Assembly: GCF_037126435.1 (NCBI RefSeq)
Contig: NZ_CP147020.1
Coordinates: forward strand, 4,229,001 to 4,293,000
DNA: 64,000 bases
DNA from: Bernardetia sp. ABR2-2B
GTDB taxonomy: Bacteria; Bacteroidota; Bacteroidia; Cytophagales; Bernardetiaceae
Reading direction: 5' to 3'
Part shown: positions 5,807 to 55,351 of the stretch, piece after piece
How positions within the stretch are numbered: position 1 is the first letter of the stretch
How the letters are laid out: every line of letters begins with the position of its first letter
Notes under the pieces: generated by a model
The model's database searches: none
What the model saw: the letters and a program-made list of their open reading frames with translations, nothing else
Told to the model about the DNA's origin: nothing
Position numbers and translations under genes: made by a program

Positions 5807-5885
5807 AAATACAAATTTAGAATTTAGATTTTATAATTCAGAGTTAAAATCAGTTTAGAATAGTCATCAATTCTAAAATCTAAAT

Positions 5886-30200: not shown

Positions 30201-33200
30201 AGCAACAAATGATGATGCTTGTCCTAACCCAGGTTGTGGTGATCCTTACCAATCTTGGTTGATAAGTCCAAAATTTGATTTTTCATCATATTCTCAAATT
30301 GAACTAGATTTTAGAGCTGTACTTGAAAATGACAGAGGACAGGTTCGTGTGAGTACAGATAGAATTAGCTGGACAACTATTCATACAATGGCAGATATAG
30401 CAGATGTTTGGCAAGATGTTACGTTAGATTTGAGTGCATATGCTAATGAGCCTCAAGTATGGATTGCTTTTTATTATGATGATTTGGGTGCTTGGGGATA
30501 TGGCTTTGCAGTAGATGATGTAGTTGTAAGAGAAAAAGCTATTGAACTAGTTAGCTTTTTACCTGCAAACAATGCGACTAATGTAGCTACAAATACATCA
30601 CTTGCTCTTACTTTCAATCGTGTTCCTACTATTGGTACTGGTTCTATTACACTTACAGGAGGAGCTACTCCGATTGTAGTGCCTGTTTCTGCTGCCAATA
30701 CAACTATTACAGGAAATACAGCAACAGTAACCTTGCCTTCTTCACTAGAAGATGCTACAACTTATTCAGTAGATGTACCTAGTAGTACGTTTTCAGCCAA
30801 TGGTGTAGATTTTGGAGGAATTTTACCTGCAAACTGGCAGTTCACAACTATATCAGCAGATACAGATTCACGAATTGTTGCACCTACTACTATGCCTATT
30901 TCTACTTCGATATCTTCATTAGCTACCACATCAGCTAGTGCAGTAGAAGTATTCTTTTTCAAAGTAGAAGATTTAGCAACAACAGATGCTTTGCCTACCG
31001 ATGTAACTCGTGTAGATATTAGACAAGGAGCTGCAAATACAGTAACGGACTGGACAACACAATTACAAGGAGCAGAACTTTGGGCTGGTGGAAGTCAGAT
31101 TACTGCAACAGCAACTATTACTGCAGACAGGATTCGCTTTACTATTCCTGCTGGAAATGCAAGTACAGCAAGTGGAGCAAATACAGATTATACCGTGAAA
31201 GTATTTTTGAATACAACAGGAATTTTAGACCAAGAAGTATTACAATTCCAAATTCCTAGTACGGGACACGAAGCACAAACTTCAGGTAACTCTTCTACTT
31301 TTGCAGCTACTTTTCCTGCTAATGTTGTATCAAATATATTTACTTTAGATGTTGTTGCGACACGTTTAGGTTTCTCAAGTGTACCAAACACAGCGATTGT
31401 TAGTTCAAACTTTGCAGTAGAAGTACAAGCTCTTGATGCAAATGGAAATATAGACCGAGCAGCAAGAACAATTTCATTATTGAGAGATGGAGGAACTGGA
31501 ACTGGAACTCTTAGTGCTACTTCTGGATTAGGAAGCCGTGCTATGACAAATGGTGTATTTACTTGGACTGATTTGCAGTTTGATGCAACTGGAGAATATA
31601 GTGTAAGAGTAAATGATGATGGAAGTGCCTTTACTGATTTAAGTAGTCTTATAAATGTAGTAAATCCAGTAAACCCTATACCATCAGTAGGTTCACCAAC
31701 ACAGTTTGAAGCTATTGGAATAGATACTGCTCGTGTTAATCTTACTTGGGGAGCTGCTGCAAATGCGACAGGCTATAATTTATATAGACTAAATCGTTTG
31801 GTTGCTACCTTACCTGCTACTGCGCTTTCTTACAATGATAGCTTATTGACTGAAGATACTTTTTATGGATATAGACTTGAAGCATTCAATTCAGTATCGA
31901 AAAAAGAAGTAGCTACAAACGCTGTTACTTATCCTAAAGTACCAACTTTAGTGAGTAAAACAGATGCTTGTATAGGTGGAAAAGGACAAATTGTAGTAAG
32001 TAGTACGCATACAACAAGAAGTATTCTTTGGTATGATTCTGAAACAGCTACTGAGCCAATTCAAGATGATTCTTATACCTTCGAAACTGAAAACCTTACT
32101 GCTGCAAAGACATATTATGTTTCAGCAATGGGAATTCGTTATGAAAGCAAAACTAGATTAGCTGTTACTATTGATGTGAAAGAACTTCCAGTAGCAACTA
32201 TTTTGGGAGATTTAGTACGCTCAACGTGTGAAAATTCATTGACACTAGAAGCTAACACAGAAAATGCTTCTTCTGATGCAATTTATACGTGGTATCTAAA
32301 TGGTACAGCAATACAAAATAGCAATGCACCAACTTATCAAGCTATTAGAAGTGGAAGGTATTCATTAATAATAACACAAAATGAATGTGTTTCAGTTGTA
32401 TCTTCAACAGTTCAAGTAGAAGTAGGGCAAATTGCTCCTGCTCAAATAGAGCAAGGTAGTCAAGTTTCGTTTTGTGAAACAGGTCAATTATCTGCTTTAG
32501 AAGTAGAGGGTGCAACTTACAAATGGTTACTTGATGGCAACGAAGTAGGAACAAGTTCTTCTCTTACAGTTTCTACATCAGGAAACTATACTTTGCAAGT
32601 AAGTAGAGAAACTTGTACTCAAGAAGCTCAAATTAATGTAAGTGTAGTTTCGTTTCCAACAGACATTAGTATCTCTGCTGATAAAACACAATTCTGTCAA
32701 GGAGAACAAGGTGCTATAATTTCTGTTTCAGAAGTAGAAAACGCAACTTATACTTTATTCAGAAATGGAAATAGATTAGGCGTAGCTTCTCAAAACAGAA
32801 ATTTTACAGCAACTAATTCAGGAGAGTATCACGTTGAAATTTCTTTAGGAACTTGTTCATTTACTACTGATTCTGTTAGTATCGAAAGAATAAATGTTCC
32901 AGCAGCACGTATTAATTTGACAGAAGAAAGCGTTGCAACAGTAACATCTACTGGAATAATTACAGAAGTAGAGTGGAGCAAAGATGGAGAAGTGATTAGC
33001 ACTTCTAGCTCTCTTTCACTTACTCTTAATGAAACAGGTAGTTATAGAGCCAAAGTTACCTATGAGACAGGTTGTCAGACTACTACTTCAAATAGTGTCT
33101 TTTATCGCAAACCAGAACCTATTACAGGAGTTGATGATGAAGAAGGAAATTGTTGTACAGTAGTTTATCCAAACCCTACAAGTTCTGAGGTTCGTTTAAA

Positions 33201-33402
33201 ACTTGCTGCCAATCTAAAAGATGAGTTCACTCTTACATTAACTGATGGTATTGGTAGAACTCTTATTACTAAATCTATTTCAAAAGAAGAAGCTCAACAA
33301 GAAGTCCGTTTAGATTTGAGTAAATATTCTTCTGGAATATATTTTATTAATGTTGTTACGCCAAGCGAAACACTTACTTTCAAAGTAACTAAAGAGGACT
33401 AA
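27208..33402 (+). CDS. T9SS-exported subtilase (S8) with multidomain stalk
   Basis: 2064-aa secreted serine protease. After a signal peptide (about 14-40) come a propeptide-like region and an S8 catalytic domain with triad Asp265 (GIWDGGN), His290 (DHGTHVAGT) and Ser456 (SGTSMAAPG). Following are a P-domain-like region (GTHELKVMLCWSDP), an FN3-like part, a MAM/jelly-roll-like segment (YTEDFENPNPAECWD), an SbsA-type Ig-like domain (LPANNATNVATNTSLALTFN), several Ig/PKD-like modules, and a C-terminal T9SS type A sorting domain (VVYPNPTSSEV ... GIYFINVVT). It is probably cleaved and anchored or released at the cell surface through PorV and PorU. Spacer 26834-27207 upstream shows no clear promoter. 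Confidence 0.9.
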   Translation: MKYRYSSFFSRGSIISYQKLVLLLVLGVGIMSSQMQSAIAQNTSPSLRLKSSTEKYASNTQQFKEDKSSFEDVLFGSYYFMVVQFSTLPSHKERQELKRKGIELIQYLPDLSYTAKINSNLSNNKLESLISDFKIHAFVKLSVEQKTQARLVQGDIPEWAVSAPNQVELNIIPFDALNPMLTSMAMINMGGKLINESEVSGILTVSVPQTAIMQVANLPWVLWIESLPEPPKEENYYGKSAHRSAILNYGARGLDGTGVNMGIWDGGNVADHLDFSGRVTLVENTSDSDHGTHVAGTMAGAGLLNPRNTGMAPNAQIYSHNFNGDIATEMQNAITNFGIVITQNSYGTGPSCATGDPYGSNNVGQDLLVNNNPQLVHVFSSGNSQGSCAGGFGSTTGKAAKNTITVGALRNDDVITTFSSFGPLEDGRIKPEVSAFGQGVVSTEPNNTYAANSGTSMAAPGVSGTIAQLYQRYRQLNANADPISSLMKAVLSNNADDLGNAGPDYKYGFGRINGLKAVKALEGNNYEVNTATTGDQNDVTIAVPAGTHELKVMLCWSDPAAAANANPALINNLDLEVLDPTTNTWLPWTLDGDNPNDVAVRAVNNVDIIEQVTIPTPATGTYTLRVKGTAVPSGANQQYSLTWTVTEPYIEVTYPSAGMSLTPSATELIQWDMEGVSGTTSVEYSLDNGTTWTVINGAVAANTRRLSWTVPNVMTNEARIRVSSTTPSLSNISEAFSIIGVPTGITGQPCSGSAILQWSAVTDADEYIIYQLNTTTGVYTQIGTSPTTTFTATGLSGLSWFSIRARNTTSGATSQRSVAFSITPAAGSGADLELSTIVSPVQGCDLRTATEAITIRIKNLDCSAITSGTTIPVSYTVNGGTAVTENLVLASDLNGAASIDYTFTTTVDMSASGSYVLTASVDLAADTNGANNTVSNYNVQNNPSISSLPYTEDFENPNPAECWDIVDDGVGTGTWQYGTNLGSSFFGIPDIPAGNQYAATNDDACPNPGCGDPYQSWLISPKFDFSSYSQIELDFRAVLENDRGQVRVSTDRISWTTIHTMADIADVWQDVTLDLSAYANEPQVWIAFYYDDLGAWGYGFAVDDVVVREKAIELVSFLPANNATNVATNTSLALTFNRVPTIGTGSITLTGGATPIVVPVSAANTTITGNTATVTLPSSLEDATTYSVDVPSSTFSANGVDFGGILPANWQFTTISADTDSRIVAPTTMPISTSISSLATTSASAVEVFFFKVEDLATTDALPTDVTRVDIRQGAANTVTDWTTQLQGAELWAGGSQITATATITADRIRFTIPAGNASTASGANTDYTVKVFLNTTGILDQEVLQFQIPSTGHEAQTSGNSSTFAATFPANVVSNIFTLDVVATRLGFSSVPNTAIVSSNFAVEVQALDANGNIDRAARTISLLRDGGTGTGTLSATSGLGSRAMTNGVFTWTDLQFDATGEYSVRVNDDGSAFTDLSSLINVVNPVNPIPSVGSPTQFEAIGIDTARVNLTWGAAANATGYNLYRLNRLVATLPATALSYNDSLLTEDTFYGYRLEAFNSVSKKEVATNAVTYPKVPTLVSKTDACIGGKGQIVVSSTHTTRSILWYDSETATEPIQDDSYTFETENLTAAKTYYVSAMGIRYESKTRLAVTIDVKELPVATILGDLVRSTCENSLTLEANTENASSDAIYTWYLNGTAIQNSNAPTYQAIRSGRYSLIITQNECVSVVSSTVQVEVGQIAPAQIEQGSQVSFCETGQLSALEVEGATYKWLLDGNEVGTSSSLTVSTSGNYTLQVSRETCTQEAQINVSVVSFPTDISISADKTQFCQGEQGAIISVSEVENATYTLFRNGNRLGVASQNRNFTATNSGEYHVEISLGTCSFTTDSVSIERINVPAARINLTEESVATVTSTGIITEVEWSKDGEVISTSSSLSLTLNETGSYRAKVTYETGCQTTTSNSVFYRKPEPITGVDDEEGNCCTVVYPNPTSSEVRLKLAANLKDEFTLTLTDGIGRTLITKSISKEEAQQEVRLDLSKYSSGIYFINVVTPSETLTFKVTKED

Positions 33403-38312: not shown

Positions 38313-41300
38313 ATGACTTCAATACAAATACTAAAACAATTTTTCACTAAAAATTTATTACTTAAAAAAAAGTTTCCTAATCTGAATACAGTTTGGCAAA
38401 TCTTATTTTTAAGTCTTTTTATAGCAGCAATAACAGCTTTTACGTCTCCTTTCGTAAACAAAACATTCAAATCCTTTTCTTTTTCTTCAAAAACAGAAAA
38501 TTCTTTTTCTCAAAACAAAGCTGTTCAAAACTATTTTCCTGCTTCGTTTTCAAACCCTTTTCTCAACCCACCTTCTAAAGCAGAAATATATCGTTTGATG
38601 TGTCTGCCTGATGATTCTTTGGCGTTAGTTGAGCTTTATAATGCTACTGATGGAGCAAACTGGACAAATCCGTGGACGCTTACAGACCCTTGGACGACTT
38701 GGGCTGGTGTAGTTTTGAATGCAAATGATAGTTGTGTCTTAGAACTCAATTTGAGTAACAGAAATTTGACAGGAACAATACCTACTTCAATGTTTGGAGG
38801 AGAAAAACTTAATCAAATTCAAGCTTTCAATTTGGCTGATAATAATCTAACAGGAGAAATACCAGCAGAGTTTAATACTTTACTTACTTTAGAAGAGTTA
38901 AATCTTAGTAACAATAATCTAACAGGAGAAATACCTGCTTCTCTAGCTGACTTGCTTTCTTTGAGGGCTTTGCAAATAGGTTTTAACTCATTAACAGGTA
39001 ATTTTCCAATAGAATTGACAGATATTGCAACTCTTTCTAATCTTGAAGTAATTACCATTGATTCTAATTTTATTGAAAATGTACCTACCTTTTCAGTTAA
39101 TCGCCCTATTTTGATAAACATTGCTAATAATAGGCTTAAACTAAATAGTATTGTACCAAACAATAAATCTCAATATACATTTGATTATTCACCACAAGAT
39201 AGCATAGGAGATTTTAAAATAATTAATGTTCCACAAGGAGGAACTTTTAGAGATACAGTTTCAGTAAATCAAATAAACGGAACAACTACTTATCGTTGGT
39301 TTCGTGCAGCAGACTTAGTAAATGAACAAACTGATGATAGTGTTTTGGTAGTTGATAATGCAACTATTGCAGACCACGAAGGTATTTATACAGCCGAAAT
39401 CACACATACAGGTGCGCCTGATATAACCTTGAATAGAAAACGTTTTTTTGTAAATGTAATTGAATGTCCGTCTAATAATTTGATTACTACACCTGACACG
39501 ACTATTTGTGAGGGGCAGAACTTGCCTACACTTGTAGGTTCGGAGGCTATTTTGGGAGAGGTTTCGTTCTTTTCTTATCAATGGCAACAGACTTTAAATG
39601 GAGATACTACAAGCTGGACAGATGCCAGTAATGGAAATGTACCTAATTATGCTCTAAATAATTTTGGTCTGACACTTTCAGATACAGCCTATTTTAGAAG
39701 AATTGTAATTCCTGCGCCAAATCAAGGATGTAGCAATGATACAAGTCTGAAAGTAATGGTTGTTACGTTGCCTAATGTTACTCAAAATACGCTTTTTCCT
39801 TCGATTCAAAATGTTTGTTTAGGAGTTGTCCCAACGGATATTTATGGCTCTACTTCCGATTCTTCGGCTACAAGTTTATTGCGTTATCGTTATCAAGTAT
39901 CTTTAGATTCTGGAATGACTTGGATTGATAGCCTTCAAACTCAAAATTTTGCTTTTACAGATACACTTGCTACGGCTGATACCGTTCAGTTTAGAAGAAT
40001 TGTTACAGGAGCTTGTGCGCCTGATACTAGTAACGTAATTACGATTAATTCAATTCCTAGAGTTGTGGCAGATTCTATTTTTGAAAGCCAGACAATTTGT
40101 ATAAATACACAACCAGATACAATTAGAGGAGATATGCCAATAGGAGGAGATAGAGTTTATAAATATATATGGCAAATAGCGACACGATTAGATACAGCAG
40201 ATTGGTTGAGTGTAGATTCGACACTAAATCGTTTTGTACCACCAGTCGCAAATGATACCTTTTATGTTCGAAGAGTTGTAGAAAGTGCTTGTTTTGCAGA
40301 TACAAGTAATATTGTAGATATTTTTATTTCTCCTGATTTGGGAAATGATACTTCTGCAATTACAGCTACACGAACACGTATTTGTGTAGGTGATCCAATT
40401 GCTGCAATAAATGGCACTGCTCCAGTAGCCCCAACAGGTTTTCGATATTTGTGGGAGGTTTCGTTAGATTCTTCTGTTTGGACAAGTGTAGATTCAGCTC
40501 AAAATTATATACCAAGAGATTCTCTTCTTTTTGATACTATTTTTATGCAAGTACCTGATAGCTTTTTAGTTAGGCGTTCGGTAATTGATAGTTGTAGGGC
40601 TTACCCAAGCAATGTTGTAAAACTGTTTATGATAAAGCCAATTGATAGTGCAACCAATTTAATTTCTTATGACAGCACAGGTTTTTGTGCAACAGACACT
40701 ACTTTTAATTGGACAATTGATGTAACAGAGCCAACAGGAGGAACAGGAAATTATACCTATCAATGGCAAATTTCTTTCGATAGTACAAGGTGGGCAGATA
40801 GAGATGATTCCGTCCGTATTTCTGCTTTTGATTTAACAGAATCCACTTATTTTAGGCGTTTGGTCATCGATAGTTGTAGTACAGATACGAGTAATGTTGC
40901 TTTTATTCCTGTCATTAATTCTTTTGGCTTAAATGAAATTAGTGTTCCTTTTACAGATATTTGTACGACAGATTCTGCTACGATTACAATTTCAGGTACA
41001 AATCCAGAAAGTACAGGCGAATACAGTTATTTTTATCAACAATCAAGAGATACGATAGCGTGGTTTAGTAGTTCTACTTTTACGTTCAGTACAGGTACAT
41101 TTACGCAATCTCAAACTTTCGTGCCTGATACACTTTTTGGAGGTTCAAATTATTTTAGGAGAGTTGTTTTGGGAGGTTGTAAAACAGATACTAGTAACCG
41201 AGTTTTTGTAAATGTAGTTTCTGCAATTAGAGATAATTCTATTTCTGAAAATTTTGCTGGACAATCACTTTGTGAAGGAGATACTGCTTGGACAATTGAT

Positions 41301-43151
41301 GCCACCCAACCAACAGGAGGAACTTCTAGGTATAGCTATCAATGGCAAATCTCTTTCGATAGTTTGGCATGGGCAAATAGAGATGACTCTCTCAATATTT
41401 CGAATTTTGCTCTCACAGAACCCACTTATTTTAGGCGTTTGGTTATCGATAGTTGTAATACAGATACGAGTAATGTCGTCTTTATTCCTGTCGCAAAACC
41501 ATTTGGAGTCAATCAAATAAATGCGCCTTTTACAGAAATTTGTATAGGCGATTCCACAACAATTACCCTCACAGGAACAGAACAAGAAAATACAGGAGAA
41601 TACAAATATTTTTATGAGCAATCAAGAGATACGATTTCGTGGTTTAGCAGCTCCACTTTTACATTCAGTACAGGTAATTTTACTCAAACCCAAACTTTTG
41701 TTCCTGATACTTTATTTGGAGGTTCAAATTATTTTAGAAGAGTTATTTTAGGAGGTTGTCAGCCAGATACTAGTAACAGACTTTTAGTTAATGTAGTCTT
41801 GAATGCAAGAAATAATTTTCTTTTTGGAGGACAAACTATCTGTCAAGGAGATACAGCTTCGACAATAACAGCTACACAAGCAGTTGCAGGACAAGCAGGA
41901 AATATCATTACGCAATGGGAGGTTTCTTTTGATAGTTTAATTTGGGTTCCTACCGAAACAGATACTGTAATAGCTTATGAACCTGTTACACCTCAACGGA
42001 CAACATACGTTCGAAGGAGTGTCAAGTCTGGAAACTGTCCCCCTGATTATAGTAATGTCATTAAAATAGAAGTCATTCGATTTATAGAAAATAATGAAAT
42101 ATCCACTCCTCAAACAACCGTTTGTGAAGGTTTTGCAGCCGATACGTTGCGAGGTACTTTTCCAACACAAGGAGGAAATGACAGTACAGCATACAGATTT
42201 ATTTGGCAATCAAGAAAGCTAAATGATTCGACAGCTAACTGGCGAACTGTTGGTGGAGACCAAGATTATTTTACAGGAGCAGTCAATTTTGATACAGAAT
42301 ATCGTCGTCTCGTACGTGTTTCTTGTTTTAATGATACTTCAAATGTTGTTTCTATTAGAATTAACCCTACAATAAAAAATAATATCATTGATGAAGGGTT
42401 TGTAGATTGTAGCTTAGATACTTTGAGCAGATTGACTGGAACAGTTCTTTTAGATACACTTAATGACATTGGACAGTTCCGTTATCAATGGCAAAACTCA
42501 AGAAATCAAAGAAATTGGACAGATATTGCCAATACAAATACGGCTAGTTATCTTCCTACGCCAATTGATACAACTACATTTTATCGTAGGTTAGTCATCA
42601 ATGATTGTTTTACAGATAGTAGTAATATTGCTGAAATTACGATTCGTCCTGCTCCAATTTTGGAAATTACGCCAGATACTACGATTAATATCGGATATGA
42701 AGTTCAATTATTTGTCAATGGCGCAATAAACTATCTTTGGACACCAGACCCAACACTGACAGGAGATTCTACTTCTACGCCAACAGTAAAACCAACTATT
42801 AGCACTATGTACACCGTACGAGCTGAGAATATTTATGGGTGTTTTACTTATGATAGTGTTTTTGTAACTGTAATAGGAACACCGAAAGTAAGAACAGTTG
42901 ATGTAATTACGCCAGATGGAAACGGACTTAATGACCAACTTTATATCGAAGAGATTGAACGTTATCCAGATAATGAATTAGTAATTATCAATCGTTGGGG
43001 GCAAGAAGTATATCGTAAGAAAGGCTACAATAATGATTGGGAAGGAGCAAATGAAACAGGTGGAATCCTTCCAGCAGGAACTTATTTTTATATTATAAAA
43101 TTTGAGTCTGTCAAAACCATATTGAAAGGTTCTTTTGAAATAATACGATAA
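38313..43151 (+). CDS. large LRR/Ig-like adhesin with T9SS type B sorting domain
   Basis: 1612-aa surface protein. An N-terminal hydrophobic segment (about residues 33-52) is followed by plant-type leucine-rich repeats (about 100-265; NLSNNNLTGEIPASL). A long series of PKD/Ig-like modules with repeating YQWQISFDS and FRRLVIDSC motifs fills most of the protein. The C-terminus is a gliding-motility-associated/CHU_C type B T9SS sorting domain (about 1520-1612; DVITPDGNGLNDQLYIE, IINRWGQEVY, LPAGTYFYIIKF). Two modules of 193 aa are recent duplicates (see 40711-41868). A PorP/SprF gene follows 71 bp later, the usual partner of type B cargo. Confidence 0.9.
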   Translation: MTSIQILKQFFTKNLLLKKKFPNLNTVWQILFLSLFIAAITAFTSPFVNKTFKSFSFSSKTENSFSQNKAVQNYFPASFSNPFLNPPSKAEIYRLMCLPDDSLALVELYNATDGANWTNPWTLTDPWTTWAGVVLNANDSCVLELNLSNRNLTGTIPTSMFGGEKLNQIQAFNLADNNLTGEIPAEFNTLLTLEELNLSNNNLTGEIPASLADLLSLRALQIGFNSLTGNFPIELTDIATLSNLEVITIDSNFIENVPTFSVNRPILINIANNRLKLNSIVPNNKSQYTFDYSPQDSIGDFKIINVPQGGTFRDTVSVNQINGTTTYRWFRAADLVNEQTDDSVLVVDNATIADHEGIYTAEITHTGAPDITLNRKRFFVNVIECPSNNLITTPDTTICEGQNLPTLVGSEAILGEVSFFSYQWQQTLNGDTTSWTDASNGNVPNYALNNFGLTLSDTAYFRRIVIPAPNQGCSNDTSLKVMVVTLPNVTQNTLFPSIQNVCLGVVPTDIYGSTSDSSATSLLRYRYQVSLDSGMTWIDSLQTQNFAFTDTLATADTVQFRRIVTGACAPDTSNVITINSIPRVVADSIFESQTICINTQPDTIRGDMPIGGDRVYKYIWQIATRLDTADWLSVDSTLNRFVPPVANDTFYVRRVVESACFADTSNIVDIFISPDLGNDTSAITATRTRICVGDPIAAINGTAPVAPTGFRYLWEVSLDSSVWTSVDSAQNYIPRDSLLFDTIFMQVPDSFLVRRSVIDSCRAYPSNVVKLFMIKPIDSATNLISYDSTGFCATDTTFNWTIDVTEPTGGTGNYTYQWQISFDSTRWADRDDSVRISAFDLTESTYFRRLVIDSCSTDTSNVAFIPVINSFGLNEISVPFTDICTTDSATITISGTNPESTGEYSYFYQQSRDTIAWFSSSTFTFSTGTFTQSQTFVPDTLFGGSNYFRRVVLGGCKTDTSNRVFVNVVSAIRDNSISENFAGQSLCEGDTAWTIDATQPTGGTSRYSYQWQISFDSLAWANRDDSLNISNFALTEPTYFRRLVIDSCNTDTSNVVFIPVAKPFGVNQINAPFTEICIGDSTTITLTGTEQENTGEYKYFYEQSRDTISWFSSSTFTFSTGNFTQTQTFVPDTLFGGSNYFRRVILGGCQPDTSNRLLVNVVLNARNNFLFGGQTICQGDTASTITATQAVAGQAGNIITQWEVSFDSLIWVPTETDTVIAYEPVTPQRTTYVRRSVKSGNCPPDYSNVIKIEVIRFIENNEISTPQTTVCEGFAADTLRGTFPTQGGNDSTAYRFIWQSRKLNDSTANWRTVGGDQDYFTGAVNFDTEYRRLVRVSCFNDTSNVVSIRINPTIKNNIIDEGFVDCSLDTLSRLTGTVLLDTLNDIGQFRYQWQNSRNQRNWTDIANTNTASYLPTPIDTTTFYRRLVINDCFTDSSNIAEITIRPAPILEITPDTTINIGYEVQLFVNGAINYLWTPDPTLTGDSTSTPTVKPTISTMYTVRAENIYGCFTYDSVFVTVIGTPKVRTVDVITPDGNGLNDQLYIEEIERYPDNELVIINRWGQEVYRKKGYNNDWEGANETGGILPAGTYFYIIKFESVKTILKGSFEIIR
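40711..41868 (+). repeat. in-frame tandem duplication inside the adhesin
   Basis: Two successive segments of 579 bp (193 codons), starting near 40711 and 41290, encode almost parallel sequences. Examples are SSSTFTFSTGTFTQSQTF and SSSTFTFSTGNFTQTQTF, and both contain VPDTLFGGSNYFRRV. The high nucleotide identity indicates a recent internal duplication, whereas the other modules are far more diverged. Confidence 0.85.
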
Positions 43152-47098: not shown

Positions 47099-48190
47099 AT
47101 GGAAGATATTCTGCCATTAAAAGGCACAGACCATATAGAATTTTATGTAGGAAATGCAAAACAAGCAGCCTATTATTATCAAGCAGCTTTTGGCTTTGAA
47201 GTAGTTGCGTATGCAGGACAAGAAACAGGTGTAAGAGACCGTTCTTCTTATGTTTTGCAGCAAGGAAAAATACGTTTCGTACTTACTTCGCCAATGACTA
47301 GCGACTCTCCAATAGCTGAACATATCAAAAAACATGGAGACGGAGTAAAAGTATTAGCTCTTTGGGTAGATGATGCCGAAAAATCTTATTATGATACAAT
47401 GAGTAGAGGTGCAAAATCTGCTTTAGAACCTACTCGTTTGTCAGACGAACACGGAGAAGTGGTTGTTTCAGGAATCCATACCTATGGAGAAACAATTCAT
47501 AAATTTATAGAAAGAAGAAATTATAAAGGCGCATTTATGCCAGGGTATAAGCCTAAAGAATCATTCTTTAAAGTAAAATCAACAGGTTTGAAGTTTATAG
47601 ACCATTGTGTCGGAAATGTAGAGCTTGGTAAAATGAATGAATGGGTAGAGTTTTATGAAAAAGTAATGGGCTTCAATTTGCTCGTAACTTTTGATGATAA
47701 AGATATTTCTACTGAATATACAGCCTTGATGTCAAAGGTTGTTTCGAATGGAAACGGTTATGTTAAGTTTCCAATCAATGAACCTGCAGATGGACGTAAG
47801 AAATCACAAATTGAAGAATATATTGAATTCTATGAAGGTGCAGGTGTTCAGCATATTGCCATTGCAACAGATGATATTTTAGAGACCATCGAAGAGCTAC
47901 GTCACCGTGGTGTAGATTTTCTTTATGTTCCAGACAACTATTACGAAGACCTTTTGGATAGAGTTGGAGACATTAAAGAAGATTTAGAAGACCTCAAAAA
48001 ACTAAATATCTTAGTGGATAGAGATGATGAAGGATACTTACTTCAAATCTTTACCAAACCAACGGGCGACCGTCCGACTGTTTTCTTTGAGATTATCCAA
48101 CGCCAAGGTGCAAAATCGTTTGGAAAAGGAAACTTTAAAGCCCTTTTTGAAGCTATCGAAAGAGAACAAGAATTGAGAGGTAATTTGTAA
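47099..48190 (+). CDS. hppD: 4-hydroxyphenylpyruvate dioxygenase
   Basis: 363-aa Fe(II) dioxygenase that makes homogentisate from 4-hydroxyphenylpyruvate. It has two glyoxalase/VOC-fold halves. Iron ligands in the C-terminal half: His169 (KFIDHCVGNV), His252 (GVQHIAIAT) and Glu331 (TVFFEIIQRQG). The C-terminal GFGKGNFKALFEAIE-type signature is present (GAKSFGKGNFKALFEAIE), which closes the active site. It follows phhA and forms the next-but-one step of tyrosine degradation; the aminotransferase and homogentisate dioxygenase are not in the window. Confidence 0.96.
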   Translation: MEDILPLKGTDHIEFYVGNAKQAAYYYQAAFGFEVVAYAGQETGVRDRSSYVLQQGKIRFVLTSPMTSDSPIAEHIKKHGDGVKVLALWVDDAEKSYYDTMSRGAKSALEPTRLSDEHGEVVVSGIHTYGETIHKFIERRNYKGAFMPGYKPKESFFKVKSTGLKFIDHCVGNVELGKMNEWVEFYEKVMGFNLLVTFDDKDISTEYTALMSKVVSNGNGYVKFPINEPADGRKKSQIEEYIEFYEGAGVQHIAIATDDILETIEELRHRGVDFLYVPDNYYEDLLDRVGDIKEDLEDLKKLNILVDRDDEGYLLQIFTKPTGDRPTVFFEIIQRQGAKSFGKGNFKALFEAIEREQELRGNL

Positions 48191-48217
48191 TTATACAATG
48201 ACTTTAACACTTTAACT

Positions 48218-48250
48218 AAAAAGCTCATAATTTATATTATGGGCTTTTTT
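48218..48250 (+). terminator. intrinsic terminator after hppD
   Basis: AAAAGCTCATAAT / ATTATGGGCTTTT (one G-T pair) with a T-run. It insulates the lanthipeptide promoter from upstream transcription. Confidence 0.8.
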
Positions 48251-48336
48251 TGTACCATTGAAGTGGGTTTTGTTACAGTATTTAATTTTACATGTTAGTA
48301 CAGTGTACTATTTTGTGAAAATATATACAAAAAAAT

Positions 48337-48366
48337 TTGTGTCATAGAAAAAATCTACTATATTTG
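48337..48366 (+). promoter_or_regulatory. consensus Bacteroidota promoter of the lanthipeptide locus
   Basis: TTG (48337-48339), exactly 19 bp, then TATATTTG (48359-48366) is a perfect match to TTG-N19-TAnnTTTG. Transcription would start around 48373, about 100 bp upstream of the first precursor ATG. The 5' leader (from about 48404) is partially duplicated ahead of the second precursor. Confidence 0.8.
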
Positions 48367-48470
48367 TGCATTCATTGTATGGTACAATACTAATACAAAA
48401 AATAAAGGAGTATTCCGAAAATCCTTTTTAATAGAGTAGGAAAAACATATCAATTTTACTTTTCATAATT

Positions 48471-48659
48471 ATGAAAACGAACAAAAAATTAAAACTTAAC
48501 ACTAAGAAAGTAGTTATTCTTTCTGACGAGCAGCAAGATTCTGTACAAGGTGGTACATTTAATACTCGTAATGCTGACTGTGTTCCTTATACCACATTAT
48601 GTCCATCAAACTTAGGAGCATGTCATACACAACCTGTGGCTCCTTGGTCATGTATATAA
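48471..48659 (+). CDS. class I lanthipeptide precursor 1
   Basis: 62-aa precursor peptide. The leader MKTNKKLKLNTKKVVILSDE plus the following residues ends in a double-Gly (VQGG, residues 25-28). The pattern K-L-x-L-N-x-K-x-x-x-x-LSDEQ resembles Bacteroidota class I lanthipeptide leaders, in which the LxLN-like region would be recognised by LanB. The 34-residue core (29-62) has Cys37, Cys44, Cys51 and Cys61 plus Thr29, Thr32, Thr41, Thr42, Ser46, Thr53 and Ser60, so four lanthionine rings are possible. The ATG at 48471 is reinforced by the 5' and coding conservation with precursor 2. LanC and LanB genes follow. Ring topology is unknown. Confidence 0.85.
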   Translation: MKTNKKLKLNTKKVVILSDEQQDSVQGGTFNTRNADCVPYTTLCPSNLGACHTQPVAPWSCI

Positions 48660-48822
48660 TATAATTTAATCAAGATTTCCTACAGTAACTAAAAATAGTA
48701 TTAAATATTTTATTTTTTTAGATAAAAACTATTAAAGTTACAATTAGGTGCATTTAGGAGAACTCTAAAAATCCTTTTAAAAAGAGTAGGAAAATTATCA
48801 ATCTTATAATTTCATATTAATA

Positions 48823-48996
48823 ATGAAAACGAACAAAAAATTAAAACTTAACACTAAAAAAGTAGTCATCTTATCTGATGAGCAGCAAAGTAACTTAGAA
48901 GGAGGGCGCATGAAAGTATATACTGAAAAGCGTATCTATTCTTGTAGGCTTTGTAGTGAAAGAAATCAATGTCCTTTTACTGAACTACCTTGTTAA
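48823..48996 (+). CDS. class I lanthipeptide precursor 2
   Basis: 57-aa precursor peptide too short for typical ORF calling. Its first 22 residues are the same as those of precursor 1 at protein level, and the leader ends NLEGG (residues 24-28). The core (29-57) is different: Cys41, Cys44, Cys50 and Cys57, with Thr34, Ser40, Ser45 and Thr53, and several Arg/Lys. The C-x2-C-x5-C-x6-C pattern has few dehydratable residues, so at most four rings could form. The duplicated leader region (about 135 bp including 5' leader) shows it arose from precursor 1 or vice versa. Sharing one LanB/LanC set is inferred. Confidence 0.8.
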   Translation: MKTNKKLKLNTKKVVILSDEQQSNLEGGRMKVYTEKRIYSCRLCSERNQCPFTELPC

Positions 48997-49060
48997 GTTA
49001 GCTATCTTACTTAACATAGTATTATTTTTTGAAAAATAGTAACTTTGCCTAATAAATAAT

Positions 49061-49140
49061 AAAGTAATTTAGAAGGGCATATGAGAATAATTAATAAAAA
49101 GTGTGTTTATTTTTTTTAGTAAAAGAAATAAATACCTTTT
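49061..49140 (+). pseudogene. decayed copy of precursor 2
   Basis: A non-coding stretch after precursor 2 aligns with part of its coding sequence: AAAGTAATTTAGAAG against AAAGTAACTTAGAAG, then GGC-ATGA, AAAAGTGTGTTTAT, and TAGTAAAAGAAATAAAT-x-CCTTTT against TAGTGAAAGAAATCAATGTCCTTTT. It has several deletions and no intact reading frame, and the leader start is missing. This reads as a relic of a third precursor gene. Confidence 0.6.
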
Positions 49141-49176
49141 TGAAGTTTAATTTGAACGCTCAACTTATCTTTCTTA

Positions 49177-49213
49177 AAACGGAATTTCTAAGCTGAAATT
49201 CCGTTTGTTTTTT
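49177..49213 (+). terminator. strong hairpin between precursor genes and lanC
   Basis: A perfect 11-bp stem AAACGGAATTT / AAATTCCGTTT with an 8-base loop and a following T-run, only 19 bp before the lanC start. As in other lantibiotic operons it probably acts as an attenuator, giving more precursor than enzyme mRNA, with read-through into lanC. No separate promoter for lanC was found. Confidence 0.8.
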
Positions 49214-49232
49214 CAATAAAAAAAACTCAAAA

Positions 49233-50351
49233 TTGAAAACTGTATTCAATAATTTACCAAATGTTTTTTTCTCTAATTTTGGCTACTTGGGAAACCTAGG
49301 TAGTCTAAGTTTAATAGCAAACTTTGATTCAGAAAAAGCTGAACAAATGCTAACTAAATTTTACGAAAAGATAGAAGAAGCTCCTTATGTCCAACCCGAT
49401 ATATATGGTTTATCCAGTTTGGGTATCTTACTTAATTACTTATCTAAAGTAGATAAAAATCGCTTTGAAGAATATAATGAAGAATTTATAAATGATTTTT
49501 CAAGTGTTATTTTGGAAGCTAGTCAGGCAATGGCAGAAAGACTAGAATACGATACTTTTACAGGATTGGTATGTACACTAAATTATTTTGTTCTTACTGA
49601 GCAAATAGAAAACACACTAAAAGTAGTTGACTTACTACAAAAAGTTACTCAGCAACTTTATCAAAAAAAAGAGCTTAATAATTTAGGTCTTGCACACGGA
49701 GTTTGTGGAATCATTGCTGTTTTGGCTAAGACGATTCTTTTTTTAGAAAAGACAGAAACTACAAACGACATTTTAGTAAAATATAAAGATACATTAGAAC
49801 TTATTACAAATCATGTAATGAATCAAAAAGGAGAAATTGGTAATTTCTGTTTTCCTTATACTGTGGGAGGAAAAACTAGCCGTTTAGCTTGGTGTTATGG
49901 TGATTTTTCTATTTGTATTGCCCTCACTTGGGCTGCATTAGTTTTACCTAATAAAAAGAAAATAGATAAGGTAGTACAAGCTACAATAAATAATGCTATC
50001 AATCTAAAGGATACAGACAGACTTTTTATCACAAATAAAGACACAAAAGAATATGACTTAGCACTTTGTCATGGAGTATCTGGAGTATATTTAGTTTTTA
50101 AGAGATTATATGATTTTTATCCTAGTCAAGAGTTAGCAGAAGAGATAAAAAGACTAAAAGAAGAATTACATAAAGAAGTGCAGAAAGGCATAGAAAACAT
50201 TAAATTTCCTGTATCAATACAACAAGAACCATTAATTTTTGAATGGCAAACAGATTTATCATTCTTGAATGGTCTATCAGGCTTCTTGGCAGCTTATCAT
50301 GATGATGAACTAGTAAAAGGTTGGGATGCTCCTCTTCTAACCGATTTTTAA
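49233..50351 (+). CDS. lanC: lanthipeptide cyclase
   Basis: 372-aa LanC-family cyclase with an alpha/alpha-toroid fold. Zinc ligands Cys221 (LAWCYGDFS), Cys279 and His280 (ALCHGVSG) are present. GLAHGVCGIIAVL (His155) matches the catalytic region in which NisC has its active His. It adds Cys thiols to dehydroalanine or dehydrobutyrine residues of the precursor cores. The start codon is TTG; the next in-frame Met is residue 39, which would remove the first helix, and a stop lies in frame at 49194, so TTG is favoured. Followed after 26 bp by lanB. Confidence 0.9.
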   Translation: MKTVFNNLPNVFFSNFGYLGNLGSLSLIANFDSEKAEQMLTKFYEKIEEAPYVQPDIYGLSSLGILLNYLSKVDKNRFEEYNEEFINDFSSVILEASQAMAERLEYDTFTGLVCTLNYFVLTEQIENTLKVVDLLQKVTQQLYQKKELNNLGLAHGVCGIIAVLAKTILFLEKTETTNDILVKYKDTLELITNHVMNQKGEIGNFCFPYTVGGKTSRLAWCYGDFSICIALTWAALVLPNKKKIDKVVQATINNAINLKDTDRLFITNKDTKEYDLALCHGVSGVYLVFKRLYDFYPSQELAEEIKRLKEELHKEVQKGIENIKFPVSIQQEPLIFEWQTDLSFLNGLSGFLAAYHDDELVKGWDAPLLTDF

Positions 50352-50377
50352 AAATAGACTTTAAATTATACTTATAA

Positions 50378-53300
50378 ATGAATTATTTTTTCTTACGCAG
50401 TCCTTTATCTCCACTTTTTTCAGAGAAACCAGCAGATGAATTGGCTATTTTTTTATCTTCTCCTAATTTTCAAAATACGGTCAAAGAATACGAAGAAGGA
50501 AAGCTAAAGGATAAAAAAGTAGAAAAATTTTCACTTTCTAAAGCAAAATATGATTTACGCTCTCGTTTTAGATGTACTCCTTTTGGGACATTTGCAGGTA
50601 TTTCGGCAGGAAAACTAGCTTCAAAAAATGAAGGCTTTGTTCATCAAGGAATAAAAAAATATCATCTTTCTTTAGATATGTCTGTTTTGGGTGCGTGGAT
50701 AGATAAACTTCATCAAATACAAGAGTTTTTAGAAGTGCTTACTTTTTATCCAAATAATACACTTTATCAATTTGGAGAAGACAAACGTTATATAGAATCT
50801 TATTTTGAGGGAGAAAAAGCTAGAAAATACGCTATCTCTAATATAGAATGGAATGAGTATTTAGAGCAAATTATAGAATTTGCAAAAAAAGGTAAAAAAG
50901 TAACAGAAATAGCAGAACAGTTAGTAGATGAGGATATTTCATTAGAAGAAGCAAAAGAATTTGTTTTAGAAATTATAGAAGCTCAAATTCTTGTTTCAGA
51001 TATAGCTTTAAAAATTACAGGAGAACCTTTTGAAGATATTTTAAGAGATAAAATAGGGTTTTATTTAGAAAATAACCCTCAATTGCAACATATAGAAAAG
51101 TATAGTTTTATAAAAGAATCATTTTCTCTCCTTTCTGAACTAAAAGAGTATTATCAGAAAAATCAACCCAAAAGCACAGAGTTACTAGCTTTTTCTCAAA
51201 AAATAAAAAACTTAGGGATTCCCTTCAAATTAAGTTCTTTGTTCCAAATGGATACCGTCTTACAACTCGAAAATCCATCTCTTCATTATTCTATCAAAGA
51301 AGAACTAGAAAAAGCAATTGATTTACTAAAACATGTTCATTCATATAAAGAAATTTCTACTCTAACATCTTTCAAAGAAGCATTTTCTGCTCGTTATGAG
51401 TCGGCAGAAGTTCCTCTTATGCAAGTGCTTGACCCAGAAATTGGTCTTGGTTTTCCTCTAAGAAGTCAGTCAAATAATGATAATGCACCCTTACTAAAAG
51501 GAATGCCTCTTAATGGTGGCAGAAACATCCAACAACCTTCTCCTCAACAAACAAGATGGACACAATTTTTGCAGAAAAAATATATAGAAGCTCTTCAAAA
51601 TAAATCTTCTTTAATTGAGCTTACCAACAAAGAATTAAAAAAAGAACTAGGTTTTATTCCTAAAAAGTATAGAAATTCTAAGCAGAATAAAAATAATAAC
51701 CCAACAAAAGAAGAAAGTAAAAATTTACCACTTTCATATTCTTCCATGATTACTCTTCTAACTCCCTCCTCTGAGGCAATTGAGGAAGGAAATTATAAAA
51801 TAGTTCATAAGGGAACAAATGGTTCTTCTGCTGTTACTCTACTAGGACGTTTTTGTCATGCAGATGCTCAAACAAATGAGTATGCTTTGGAGTGTATCAA
51901 GCAAGAAGAAGAACTATCAGATAAAATTTTTGCAGAAATTGTACATCTTCCTGAAGCTAGAGTAGGTAATGTGATTGCTCGTCCACAACTTAGAAAGTAT
52001 GAAATTCCGATTGGAGTACGAACAGCCGAAAATGCAAATTCTATTACCTTAGATGATATTAGAGTTTCAGTTAGCAATGGAGAAATAAAATTACGTTCTA
52101 TTAAGTATAACAAAGAAATTATTCCTAGAATGAGTAATGCTCATAATTATAGTATGACAGAAATTCCTGCTTATCACTTTTTGTGTACATTACAAAATCA
52201 AGATGTAATTGGTAGTTTAATGTTTAGTTGGAATCAGTTAGCAAATGAATCTTATTTGCCTAGAGTGGAATATGAGAAAGTTATTTTAAGTCCTCAAAAA
52301 TGGATTATTTCTCTCAAAGAGACTAAAATAGATAAAAATGTCAGTACAGAAAAAGCTTTAGAAAAACTGAGAGTTTATTTTCAAGACAGAAGCATTCCTA
52401 ATCGTCTTACTTTTGGGCAAGGAGACAATATCTTGCCTTTATTCGTTGATAATGATATTAATTTAATTCTTTTTTGGCAACAGTTAAAGAAAATGCAGCA
52501 AGTATCTATTAGTGAAATGCTCTATAATGAAGATAATTTATTTATAAAAGATGAGGAAGGAAATGGTTATACCAATGAATTTATTATTCCTCACTTATTA
52601 CCTTCAACAAAGTCTGAAAGTAACTCCATATTTAATACTACTACAAATTTAGAAGCTACATTACAAAGAGAATATACTATTGGCTCTGAATGGATTTATT
52701 TCAAAATTTATTGTGGAGTAAGTACAGCAGATGAATTGTTATTACAAAGATTGTTTCCTTTAGCTGCACAATTAAAACAAGCAAATATAATTACAGAGTG
52801 GTTTTTTATTCGTTATGGCGATCCAGATCATCATTTACGTATTCGTTTTAAAGGAAAAAATGATTTTTACAAAACAGTAATTGAGAGTTTATATAAAAAC
52901 CTAAATGAGTTAGTAGAAAATAAATCAGTTTGGAATATTCAAATAGATACTTACAAAAGAGAAATTGAAAGATATGGCTCTAAAAACATGATAAATAGTG
53001 AGTCTTTATTTCATAAAGAAAGCGAACTAATTTGTAGTATTTTACAAAACATAAATGAAGATGATGATTTGAGATGGAAATTAGCCTTTTTAGGTGTGGA
53101 TAATTTACTTACTAATTTTGAATTAGAAATTGACCACAAAAAACGTTTGATGGAAGTTTTATCAGAAAGTTTTCACAAAGAATTTGGTTTAGAAAATGTG
53201 CATGACACAAAGATTTTATCTAAAAGTTATAGAGAAAAAAGACAAACGATTGAAGAAATTATAGAAAATCCTGCTATTTATCCAGCATACAAAGAATTAT

Positions 53301-53533
53301 TTACTCGTCATTCATTATCTATAAAAGAAAGTGTAGATAAAGTTATTGCACTAGCTAAAAATGATGAATTAGAAATGAGCTTATCTAATTTGATAGCCAG
53401 TTATATACATATGTTTTTGAATAGATATTTTAGAGCCAACCAAAGAAAACACGAATGTATAATTTATTATATGCTGTTTCAATACTATCGATCTGCCGAA
53501 GCAAAAAATAAAGTAGCTCTTTTAGTTGATTAA
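50378..53533 (+). CDS. lanB: lanthipeptide dehydratase, full-length LanB
   Basis: 1051-aa class I dehydratase. N-terminal glutamylation domain (about 1-700): the family start FFLRSPLSPLF, SKAKYDLRSRFRCTPFGTFAG (about 53-72), and VIARPQLRKYEI with DDIRVSVSNGEIKLRS. C-terminal elimination domain (about 765-1045, the thiopeptide-type/SpaB_C region) with SEWIYFKIYCG and EWFFIRYGDPDHHLRIRFKG. It uses glutamyl-tRNA(Glu) to activate Ser/Thr in the precursor and eliminates glutamate to give dehydroamino acids. Unlike split LanB systems known from Bacteroidota (pinensin type), both halves are fused here. It ends the visible operon. Confidence 0.92.
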   Translation: MNYFFLRSPLSPLFSEKPADELAIFLSSPNFQNTVKEYEEGKLKDKKVEKFSLSKAKYDLRSRFRCTPFGTFAGISAGKLASKNEGFVHQGIKKYHLSLDMSVLGAWIDKLHQIQEFLEVLTFYPNNTLYQFGEDKRYIESYFEGEKARKYAISNIEWNEYLEQIIEFAKKGKKVTEIAEQLVDEDISLEEAKEFVLEIIEAQILVSDIALKITGEPFEDILRDKIGFYLENNPQLQHIEKYSFIKESFSLLSELKEYYQKNQPKSTELLAFSQKIKNLGIPFKLSSLFQMDTVLQLENPSLHYSIKEELEKAIDLLKHVHSYKEISTLTSFKEAFSARYESAEVPLMQVLDPEIGLGFPLRSQSNNDNAPLLKGMPLNGGRNIQQPSPQQTRWTQFLQKKYIEALQNKSSLIELTNKELKKELGFIPKKYRNSKQNKNNNPTKEESKNLPLSYSSMITLLTPSSEAIEEGNYKIVHKGTNGSSAVTLLGRFCHADAQTNEYALECIKQEEELSDKIFAEIVHLPEARVGNVIARPQLRKYEIPIGVRTAENANSITLDDIRVSVSNGEIKLRSIKYNKEIIPRMSNAHNYSMTEIPAYHFLCTLQNQDVIGSLMFSWNQLANESYLPRVEYEKVILSPQKWIISLKETKIDKNVSTEKALEKLRVYFQDRSIPNRLTFGQGDNILPLFVDNDINLILFWQQLKKMQQVSISEMLYNEDNLFIKDEEGNGYTNEFIIPHLLPSTKSESNSIFNTTTNLEATLQREYTIGSEWIYFKIYCGVSTADELLLQRLFPLAAQLKQANIITEWFFIRYGDPDHHLRIRFKGKNDFYKTVIESLYKNLNELVENKSVWNIQIDTYKREIERYGSKNMINSESLFHKESELICSILQNINEDDDLRWKLAFLGVDNLLTNFELEIDHKKRLMEVLSESFHKEFGLENVHDTKILSKSYREKRQTIEEIIENPAIYPAYKELFTRHSLSIKESVDKVIALAKNDELEMSLSNLIASYIHMFLNRYFRANQRKHECIIYYMLFQYYRSAEAKNKVALLVD

Positions 53534-53695
53534 AAATGGGTTAAAATGAATCAAAGAAAGAAAAATTAGCTTAGTTTTACGCATAGAATTAAACAAATCT
53601 AATTCATTAGCTGTTTTTTAGGTAACTTTTTATTTGTACTATAAAATAAATAGTTTAAAAAACGCTCATTCATTTTCATTTAATCAATACAAAAA

Positions 53696-54547: not shown

Positions 54548-55351
54548 ATGAAAAATTATACTTTCCTTTCTATCTCAATTTTGTTATTTGTAGTATTACT
54601 TTCTGCTTGTAATTCTTCTTCCAAATCAATTAGTCAGAATAAAGAGGATTCTACCAAAGTCATTGTGACTGATGCTCTTGAAAAAGATATAGAAAATAAA
54701 GTAGAACAAATAGAAAAAATAAAACTGCCTTTTATTGAAGATAATTTTTCTGAAATTGCTTTTCCTTTACAAATTGATACAGTCATTTTTGAAGGAAGAA
54801 AGAAATTACCAACTGATTTTTTATTAAAATTAGAAAAAATGGTAACAAAAAATGAACAGAGGTATGCACTTCAGTTTCCTTCTTTTGTCAAATTAAATAA
54901 ACTCAAAACAGGACAAGACCCAGTAACAAGTGGTAAATTTGATATTGGAGAATCTATACAAGTGACTTATTATGATATGGGATATACTTTTATAGAACAA
55001 AAAAATAGTTGGTTGGCTTTTGTTGGTGTAGAATATGAACCTTATCCTGCTTGTCCGTGGGGAAGTGGTAGAGAAATTGTACTTTCTACATTTGATACAG
55101 AAGGAAATCTAATTGACTTATTTACCATTGCCGAAAATTCTGAAGGAGGCGATCCACCTGCTTGGGGCAAAAGCCAAAAAAAGGTCTTTTCAGAAAACGG
55201 TCAAGAATATACTCTTGATATAAAAAATATATACGGAGAAAATGATGACAATGGAGATGTTGATTTTCAAGAAGTAAATAAAGAAACTCAAAAAATAAGT
55301 ATTCAAGAGGATGGTAAATTAAAAATAGATAAATCTCAAAAAAAGGAATAA
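54548..55351 (+). CDS. hypothetical lipoprotein
   Basis: 267-aa lipoprotein (lipobox LLSAC, Cys about residue 21). The mature part is Lys/Glu-rich at first, then beta-structured with FVGVEYEPYPACPWGSGREIVLST and SEGGDPPAWGKSQKKVFSENGQ. No family recognised. It follows the ABC ATPase in the same direction, 78 bp away. Confidence 0.65.
   Translation: MKNYTFLSISILLFVVLLSACNSSSKSISQNKEDSTKVIVTDALEKDIENKVEQIEKIKLPFIEDNFSEIAFPLQIDTVIFEGRKKLPTDFLLKLEKMVTKNEQRYALQFPSFVKLNKLKTGQDPVTSGKFDIGESIQVTYYDMGYTFIEQKNSWLAFVGVEYEPYPACPWGSGREIVLSTFDTEGNLIDLFTIAENSEGGDPPAWGKSQKKVFSENGQEYTLDIKNIYGENDDNGDVDFQEVNKETQKISIQEDGKLKIDKSQKKE

What the first reader, a model, noticed from the sequence alone, without database searches (positions are those of the whole stretch)
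48337..53533. Compact class I lanthipeptide locus in a Bacteroidota genome
In one co-directional block: a perfect Bacteroidota promoter, two precursor genes with the same leader but unrelated Cys-rich cores, an intrinsic hairpin, LanC with Cys221/Cys279/His280, and a full-length 1051-aa LanB. Known families: NisB/NisC-type enzymes; pinensins are the best-known Bacteroidota class I products and use split LanB. Neither core sequence resembles a lantibiotic that I recognise.
Basis: partly seen in the sequence, partly recalled or inferred. Interest (0 to 1): 0.85.

Follow-up and report, generated by a model that had tools for sequence, protein, structure and literature searches.

The report
Swappable lanthipeptide cassettes in Bernardetia
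A Bernardetia bacterium carries a small gene set that should make ring-stitched peptides; close relatives keep the same enzymes and peptide 'handle' but have swapped the active peptide parts, and each of these peptide genes is preceded by a small folded RNA of unknown function.

Summary
In detail: two precursor genes, a hairpin, LanC and a full-length LanB form a class I lanthipeptide locus (48191-53667) in a Bernardetia genome. The kind is known, and LanB of full length is common in the phylum (24 of 42 places). (1) The locus evolves by cassettes: promoter, 5' UTR, leader, core, terminator and LanC are duplicated in tandem, with a copied HPPD tail and a deleted-LanC scar as footprints. Two relatives about 97% identical on both sides have unrelated cores and LanC about 80% identical in between. 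34 of 36 core pairs are at shuffle level; at a second lanthipeptide locus 6 of 6 are conserved. Four congeners have an empty site. (2) The conserved UTR is the Rfam RNA DUF805b (function unknown). It precedes 9 of 9 precursors of this locus in three genomes and precursors in four genomes outside the genus; elsewhere small secreted or Gly-Gly peptides. A covarying pseudoknot in it holds in 53 of 56 elements (shuffles at most 34). It is absent from 15 of 18 other LanB loci. No product, export or activity is shown.

The parts
48336..48366 (+). Bacteroidota-type promoter TTTG-N19-TATATTTG of the first cassette
   Evidence: pattern match; boxes and 19-base spacing kept in 7 of 7 cassette promoters of 3 genomes, last G in 6 of 7; the motif itself is recalled
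48405..48442 (+). DUF805b RNA (RF02914) in the 5' UTR of LanA1, ending 28 nt before its ATG; stem 48406-48409/48422-48425, proposed pseudoknot 48414-48416/48439-48441
   Evidence: 47.2 bits, gathering 35.6; pseudoknot covariation over 56 elements; distance
48471..48659 (+). LanA1 precursor, 62 aa: 28-aa leader ending GG, 34-aa core with 4 Cys and 7 Ser/Thr
48755..48792 (+). second DUF805b RNA, between LanA1 and LanA2, 30 nt before the LanA2 ATG; no promoter motif seen before it
   Evidence: 32.8 bits, below gathering 35.6; aligned with the others; only promoter pattern match nearby is at 48336
48823..48996 (+). LanA2 precursor, 57 aa: same leader (24 of 28 aa), 29-aa core with 4 Cys and 4 Ser/Thr
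49178..49222 (+). terminator-like hairpin with U run between LanA2 and LanC
   Evidence: -13.7 kcal/mol, z -4.9; like hairpins in 5 of 5 other cassettes folded
49233..50351 (+). LanC cyclase, 372 aa, zinc ligands C221, C279, H280
   Evidence: PF05147 3.3e-26; residues; PDB 8byk 5.7e-9
50378..53533 (+). LanB, full-length dehydratase, 1051 aa
   Evidence: PF04738 and PF14028; PDB 9g04 5.8e-39 and NisB 4wd9 3.2e-32

Best explanation
A working class I lanthipeptide locus built for turnover of its products. The promoter makes an mRNA for LanA1 and LanA2; each precursor has a DUF805b RNA ending 28-30 nt before its start codon. A hairpin lets only part of transcription continue into LanC and LanB, so substrate exceeds enzyme (inferred). 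LanB recognises the constant leader and dehydrates Ser/Thr of whatever core is attached; LanC closes thioether rings on Cys (from family knowledge); a C39-type peptidase-transporter encoded elsewhere would cut after GG and export (inferred). Over evolution the unit 'promoter - DUF805b - leader - core - terminator - LanC' is tandemly duplicated, loses LanC copies and exchanges cores, while leader, UTR and LanB stay (shown by comparison). Most likely role: competition peptides under diversifying selection (inferred). Since the RNA is kept in front of second precursors that show no promoter of their own, it probably acts on translation or stability of each cistron and not on transcription start (inferred).
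For: Domains and residues. Cassettes: G006 order A1-A2-LanC-A3-LanC-A4-LanB and G002 order A1-A2-LanC-A3-LanB; LanC scar and HPPD-tail copy at the last cassette of both. G006-G002 identity 96-99% in HPPD, 91% at the first promoter, 75-84% in LanC, cores unalignable, 94-100% from the last precursor on. Core pairs: 34 of 36 at shuffle level (z at most 2.2), while leaders share 66-83 of 78-84 bases; locus II control 6 of 6 pairs z 5.9-12.5. Empty site in G001, G003, G004, G005. DUF805b before 9 of 9 locus I precursors, 6 of them above the gathering score; before the first locus II precursor in 3 of 3 genomes; before precursors in L022, L028, L233 (G050) and L234 (G131). Pseudoknot 53 of 56.
Against: No transporter, protease, regulator or immunity gene that is specific to the locus; the ABC ATPase gene after it is also present at the empty sites, and C39 proteins are in 7 of 7 congeners, with or without LanB. 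No expression or product data. One core pair is conserved (G002 A3/G006 A4, 37 of 39 aa) and one is marginal (window A1/G006 A2, z 3.1), so turnover is not uniform. DUF805b at the gathering score is absent from 15 of 18 other LanB loci (8 of 8, 6 of 7, 1 of 3), and no match was found at the second locus II precursor of G003. Enrichment near LanB in 29 genomes is modest and depends on distance: 1 seen, 0.28 expected within 3 kb (p 0.24); 3 and 0.44 within 5 kb (p 0.01); 4 and 0.84 within 10 kb (p 0.01), and one of the 3 precedes another kind of peptide. Only three genomes of the genus carry locus I, and G006 is an 84% complete MAG.
Confidence: 0.72

Rival explanations
1. Two-component lantibiotic: LanA1 and LanA2 are alpha and beta partners that act together, and differ because they have different jobs.
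For: Two adjacent precursors, one set of enzymes; roseocin, a two-peptide lantibiotic, is described with conserved leaders and diverse cores (PMC10027976, start of abstract in a listing).
Against: Relatives have 3 and 4 precursors with no alpha/beta pair kept; the window's cores have no clear counterpart there (34 of 36 pairs at shuffle level; window A1/G006 A2 marginal).
Confidence: 0.15
2. A substrate-tolerant LanB makes a library, as ProcM does for prochlorosins, and the peptides have no fixed target.
For: One LanB with 2-4 precursors of constant leader and cores of 19-51 aa with 1-7 Cys.
Against: Few precursors, with exact leader matches only in the locus and 3-mismatch matches at the level of the reversed control; LanC is duplicated along with precursors, unlike a single promiscuous enzyme.
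Confidence: 0.2
3. Decaying locus: precursors are pseudogenes drifting freely, so cores look unrelated.
For: LanC remnants, unequal copy number, a one-Cys precursor G002 A1.
Against: LanB frames intact at 86% and LanC frames at 79-86% identity to the window's in G002 and G006; leaders, UTR and promoter strongly kept; 8 of 9 cores have 2-7 Cys and 9 of 9 have at least as many Ser/Thr as Cys.
Confidence: 0.07
4. The 5' UTR similarity is only recent duplication; the DUF805b label has no functional meaning here.
For: Locus I copies are paralogues; most other LanB loci lack the RNA (15 of 18).
Against: The RNA also precedes LanA in locus II, Pedobacter cryoconitis, a Bacteroidales MAG, and genomes G050 and G131, with covarying, not copied, bases (33 of 34 outside Bernardetia).
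Confidence: 0.12

Closest known systems
Bacteroidota class I lanthipeptides with LxLxKx5L, Gly-Gly leaders (Walker et al. 2020, PMC7268733, passages; Pedobacter lusitanus PedA15.2, named in PMC12328550 passages)
   Same: LanB plus LanC, small precursor, GG leader, leucine-lysine leader motif; best NCBIfam match is leader family NF038153
   Different: Leader here reads LxLxxKx4L (one-residue shift) and falls just under the NCBIfam cut-off; no C39 protein in the locus; tandem A-C cassettes; DUF805b in the UTR
Pinensins (Chitinophaga; recalled, and cited in PMC7268733 and PMC12328550 passages)
   Same: Bacteroidota class I product. PMC7268733 places pinensin-family LanCs near the cyclase domains of class II LanM; the window's LanC also has LanM (TIGR03897, 1.9e-12, under its cut-off) as best NCBIfam match, so kinship is possible but untested
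NisB/NisC
   Same: LanB aligns with both parts of NisB, with counterparts of R83, R87, T89, D121, R464, R784, R786, R826, H961 (residue roles recalled); LanC zinc ligands present
   Different: 20.6-24.6% identity to LanBs of Bacillota and Actinomycetota in the 14 such rows shown of 103 plasmid records; leader has no FNLD box; no nisin-type P, R, K, F, E, G, I genes recognised beside it
Prochlorosin/ProcM libraries (recalled; PMC10783134 abstract start)
   Same: Constant leader, hypervariable cores
   Different: Class II enzyme, many precursors; here class I with few tandem cassettes that carry LanC
DUF805b RNA, Rfam RF02914
   Same: Sequence and stem; cis position before small ORFs
   Different: The structure line printed for Rfam's model shows no pair at the pseudoknot positions; a link to lanthipeptide precursors was not found in the library

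Membership tests
Class I lanthipeptide locus | LanB with glutamylation and elimination domains | tested here: met
   PF04738 22-695 and PF14028 772-1037; aligned residues R61, R65, T67, D100, R491, R821, R823, R865, H1011 (NisB roles recalled); counterpart of NisB D299 is an inference (D292; phmmer aligned a Glu)
Class I lanthipeptide locus | separate LanC with Cys, Cys-His zinc ligands | tested here: met
   C221, C279, H280
Class I lanthipeptide locus | precursor with leader and Ser/Thr plus Cys core | tested here: met
   LanA1 4 Cys, 7 Ser/Thr; LanA2 4 Cys, 4 Ser/Thr
Class I lanthipeptide locus | thioether-containing product | not testable with these tools
   needs mass spectrometry
Bacteroidota LxLxKx5L GG-leader precursors | LxLxKx5L motif | tested here: inconclusive
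   locus I has LxLxxKx4L; locus II precursors fit LxLxKx5L (read by eye)
Bacteroidota LxLxKx5L GG-leader precursors | NCBIfam NF038153 at cut-off | tested here: not met
   20.7 and 20.1 bits, cut-off 22
Bacteroidota LxLxKx5L GG-leader precursors | C39 peptidase in the cluster (often, not always) | tested here: not met
   the two C39 matches of the genome lie about 2 Mb away
DUF805b RNA | gathering score 35.6 | tested here: met
   LanA1 element 47.2; the LanA2 element, 32.8, does not meet it
Prochlorosin-type library | class II LanM and many precursors | tested here: not met
   separate LanB and LanC, 2-4 precursors

The most novel reading that the evidence does not exclude
DUF805b is a pseudoknotted translation-control RNA, set about 20-30 nt before the start codon, that marks exported small peptides across Bacteroidota, and this locus couples it to a lanthipeptide arsenal whose core-plus-LanC cassettes are swapped between close relatives, a class I counterpart of hypervariable bacteriocin loci.
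Probability: 0.35. Interest if true: 0.75.

Novelty: new variant of a known kind. Interest (0 to 1): 0.55.

Why it matters
It gives a close-up, in near-identical genomes, of how lanthipeptide products turn over while the dehydratase stays, with the duplication footprints still readable. It also gives an orphan Rfam RNA a testable role: its presence before lanthipeptide and other Gly-Gly peptides could help to find peptide precursors in Bacteroidota, and its covarying pseudoknot is a direct target for experiment.

Tried and rejected
Diversity-generating retroelement as source of core variation: set aside because cores differ in length (19-51 aa); no search for a reverse transcriptase was made.

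Leader elsewhere in the genomes: a pattern with up to 3 mismatches gave 0-mismatch hits only in the locus (2 in G000, 3 in G002, 4 in G006); the 3-mismatch hits are at the level of the reversed control.

Secondary structure of the UTR by RNAalifold on the nine copies alone was uninformative (7 pairs, 0 with changes on both sides); the Rfam match and wider sampling gave the answer.

Near-exact UTR patterns as a search for a regulon gave mostly background beyond the LanA copies, with one lipoprotein-like gene in G002.

Transporter link: C39 proteins are genus-wide and, in the window genome, lie beside other GG peptides, so no locus-specific exporter was found.

Literature: Weinberg et al. 2017, where I recall such RNAs being described, is not held, so the pseudoknot may already be drawn there.

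LanB tree: a first version kept only 14 rows because my motif filter was too strict (9 of 23 chosen sources gave none); it was repeated with all 23. Deep forks are weak and the Streptomyces row falls among Bacteroidota.

Pseudoknot script: a first parse gave 51 of 54 (shuffle mean 22.1, max 36); after changing the parsing rule and adding two elements, 53 of 56. Two matches (L189, L190) could not be parsed either time.
Full report
What is there. The window lies in a Bernardetia genome: a relative with 86% identical LanB is the record 'Bernardetia sp. isolate MAG-102' (L020; its contig has the same length as G006:C59, so I take L020 and G006 for one record). Between the HPPD gene (47099-48190) and an ABC ATPase gene (53696) sit LanA1, LanA2, LanC and LanB, all on the + strand. 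LanB has both dehydratase domains and aligns with NisB and with PDB 9g04. The NisB residues that I recall as catalytic have counterparts: R61, R65, T67, D100, R491, R821, R823, R865 and H1011 (read, positions). NisB D299 is aligned by phmmer to a glutamate; I read D292 in 'FQMD' as the true counterpart (inference). LanC has its three zinc ligands. The hairpin is strong. The promoter's support comes from its conservation, not from the single match.

What is ordinary. Walker et al. 2020 (PMC7268733, passages) describe Bacteroidetes class I precursors with an LxLxKx5L leader, many ending in Gly-Gly, and say nearly a quarter of class I LanCs were in Bacteroidetes. In 296 Bacteroidota genomes drawn evenly, 29 have a Lant_dehydr_C match at E 0.001 and 17 a LanC match. 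Of the 42 Lant_dehydr_C places, 24 are in open frames of 894-1103 aa, 16 in frames of 280-319 aa and 2 are degraded (I did not check each long frame for the N-terminal domain). In the LanB tree (23 rows) the window's LanB groups with the G002 and G006 orthologues, then with the LanB of a second Bernardetia locus ('locus II', support 100/100), then with a LanB of the same order (100/99).

Cassette turnover. Of 7 genus genomes, 3 have locus I (G000, G002, G006) and 3 have locus II (G002, G006, G003). In the other 4 the locus I site is empty: the blocks that match the window up to 48190-48192 and again from 53667-53670 are 86-134 bp apart instead of about 5.5 kb. Locus I differs in make-up: window A-A-C-B, G002 A-A-C-A-B, G006 A-A-C-A-C-A-B. 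The last cassette of G002 and G006 is followed by a stretch that matches only the start and the end of LanC (L020 self-matches 5731-5838 and 5852-5885 with offset 2100), and preceded by a copy of the end of HPPD (L020 7262-7694 and L038 5251-5683 match the window from 48110, inside HPPD). I read this as a tandem duplication reaching into HPPD, then loss of most of one LanC. Along the G006-G002 alignment the HPPD side is 96-99% identical, the first promoter stretch 91%, the LanC part 75-84%, cores unalignable, the stretch before the last precursor 86-92%, and from there on 94-100%. Of 36 pairs among nine cores, 34 are no more alike than codon-shuffled ones (z at most 2.2, 100 shuffles each); one is conserved (37 of 39 aa) and one marginal (z 3.1). 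The same test on locus II gives 6 of 6 clearly conserved. So the variation is a property of locus I, not of precursors in this genus.

The RNA. The UTR is strongly conserved among cassettes. cmscan identifies it as DUF805b, RF02914, at 47.2 bits before LanA1 and 32.8 before LanA2 (gathering 35.6). In the genus there are 26 matches in 5 of 7 genomes (only 150 candidates per genome were scored, so counts are lower bounds). 12 of the 26 precede precursors: 9 of 9 of locus I (6 above the gathering score) and the first precursor of locus II in 3 of 3 genomes. The second locus II precursor of G003 has no match. Outside the genus, of 18 LanB loci scanned (8, 7, 3) 3 hold DUF805b at the gathering score; in 2 (Pedobacter cryoconitis L022, Bacteroidales MAG L028) it directly precedes a LanA, in the third (L030) it precedes a 91-aa secreted-looking ORF on the other strand. 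In 29 LanB-bearing genomes there are 127 matches. Near one of 42 LanB places lie 1 within 3 kb (0.28 expected, p 0.24), 3 within 5 kb (0.44, p 0.01) and 4 within 10 kb (0.84, p 0.01). Of the 3, 2 directly precede a LanA (G050 and G131, which are of one genus), the third an 83-aa secreted-looking ORF. The locus in G050 runs DUF805b, LanA, luciferase-like monooxygenase, LanC, LanB, the order of Bernardetia locus II apart from one extra esterase-like ORF in the latter (the two extra gene names are by eye).

Elsewhere, in the 30 of 127 loci that were fetched, the RNA precedes three short peptides with a clear Gly-Gly leader (L199, L213, L225), four that look similar (L201, L207, L208, L227), and a range of other ORFs, many secreted- or lipoprotein-like (by eye; no family search was run on them). 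The gap from the RNA to the first ATG is 17-27 nt in 27 of these 30, 21-22 nt for the LanA of L022, L028, G050 and G131, and 27-31 nt for the 12 Bernardetia precursors. The three bases before the GAAAA of the loop and three bases of the 3' tail (GAGTA-NNN) can pair in 53 of 56 distinct elements (from 26 of 26 genus matches, 30 of 127 others, and 5 chosen at LanB loci; 2 more unparsed). Dealing the tails out anew gives 21.8 on average and at most 34 in 5000 trials; sliding the tail by 1-2 bases gives 0-3. Outside Bernardetia it is 33 of 34. The pairs TCC/GGA, GCC/GGC, ACC/GGT, CCC/GGG, CTC/GAG, TCT/AGA and GCT/AGC all occur. One of the three misses (LanA2 of the window) is read one base off by my script and would pair as TCT/GGA. 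The structure line of the Rfam model shows no pair at these positions, so the match procedure did not favour pairing. Related sequences inflate such shuffles, which is why the non-Bernardetia count matters.

Mechanism. LanA2 of the window and A2 of G002 show no promoter of their own yet keep the RNA, so I infer action on translation or mRNA stability of each cistron. The hairpin after the precursors (6 of 6 folded, z -4.4 to -5.8) would hold enzyme expression below precursor expression. Export and leader removal must be in trans, or by genes I did not recognise. Antimicrobial use is the likeliest role given turnover of the product part, but nothing here shows it.

Novelty. The lanthipeptide class is known; the cassette turnover with LanC inside the exchanged unit, and the DUF805b link, I did not find in print. 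Searches: for lanthipeptides (Bernardetia with lanthipeptide: 0 papers), for the RNA (DUF805b: 0 papers). The library holds only open-licence papers and I read listings and passages, no whole text, so absence there is weak.

Noticed in passing
L039 6740-13866, L040 3199-10337, L041 7620-14557: Second Bernardetia lanthipeptide locus: conserved precursor(s), an esterase-like ORF, a luciferase-like monooxygenase ORF overlapping LanC, LanC and LanB (two names by eye); no second LanB in the window genome. Same order without the esterase-like ORF in G050 (L233).
   Followed up: partly
L110 3972-17699: Window genome: a C39-containing 738-aa protein and a second C39-like 544-aa ORF flank three ORFs of 611-615 aa and two GG peptides with a shared leader (KKKFGxFAVS...KGG): a separate double-glycine peptide system.
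   Followed up: partly
54548-55351: Lipoprotein-like ORF after the ABC ATPase gene has no match at this site in G002, G006, G001 and G005; G003 matches part of it at 73%: another presence/absence difference beside the lan locus.
   Followed up: no
L192, L195, L180: DUF805b before a 36-aa Lys/Pro-rich peptide in three Bernardetia genomes (G002, G006, G003).
   Followed up: no
L039 3007-3734, L040 13318-13693: Rfam tRNA matches (42-58 bits in L039) are 108-129 nt long, with 46-67 nt in the anticodon arm where the model has 2-11; ARAGORN reports no tRNA in either locus. Intron-like inserts or pseudo-tRNAs.
   Followed up: partly
27208-33402 and 38313-43151: A 2064-aa subtilase-like secreted ORF and a 1612-aa ORF with leucine-rich repeats, both by eye from the translation.
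   Followed up: no
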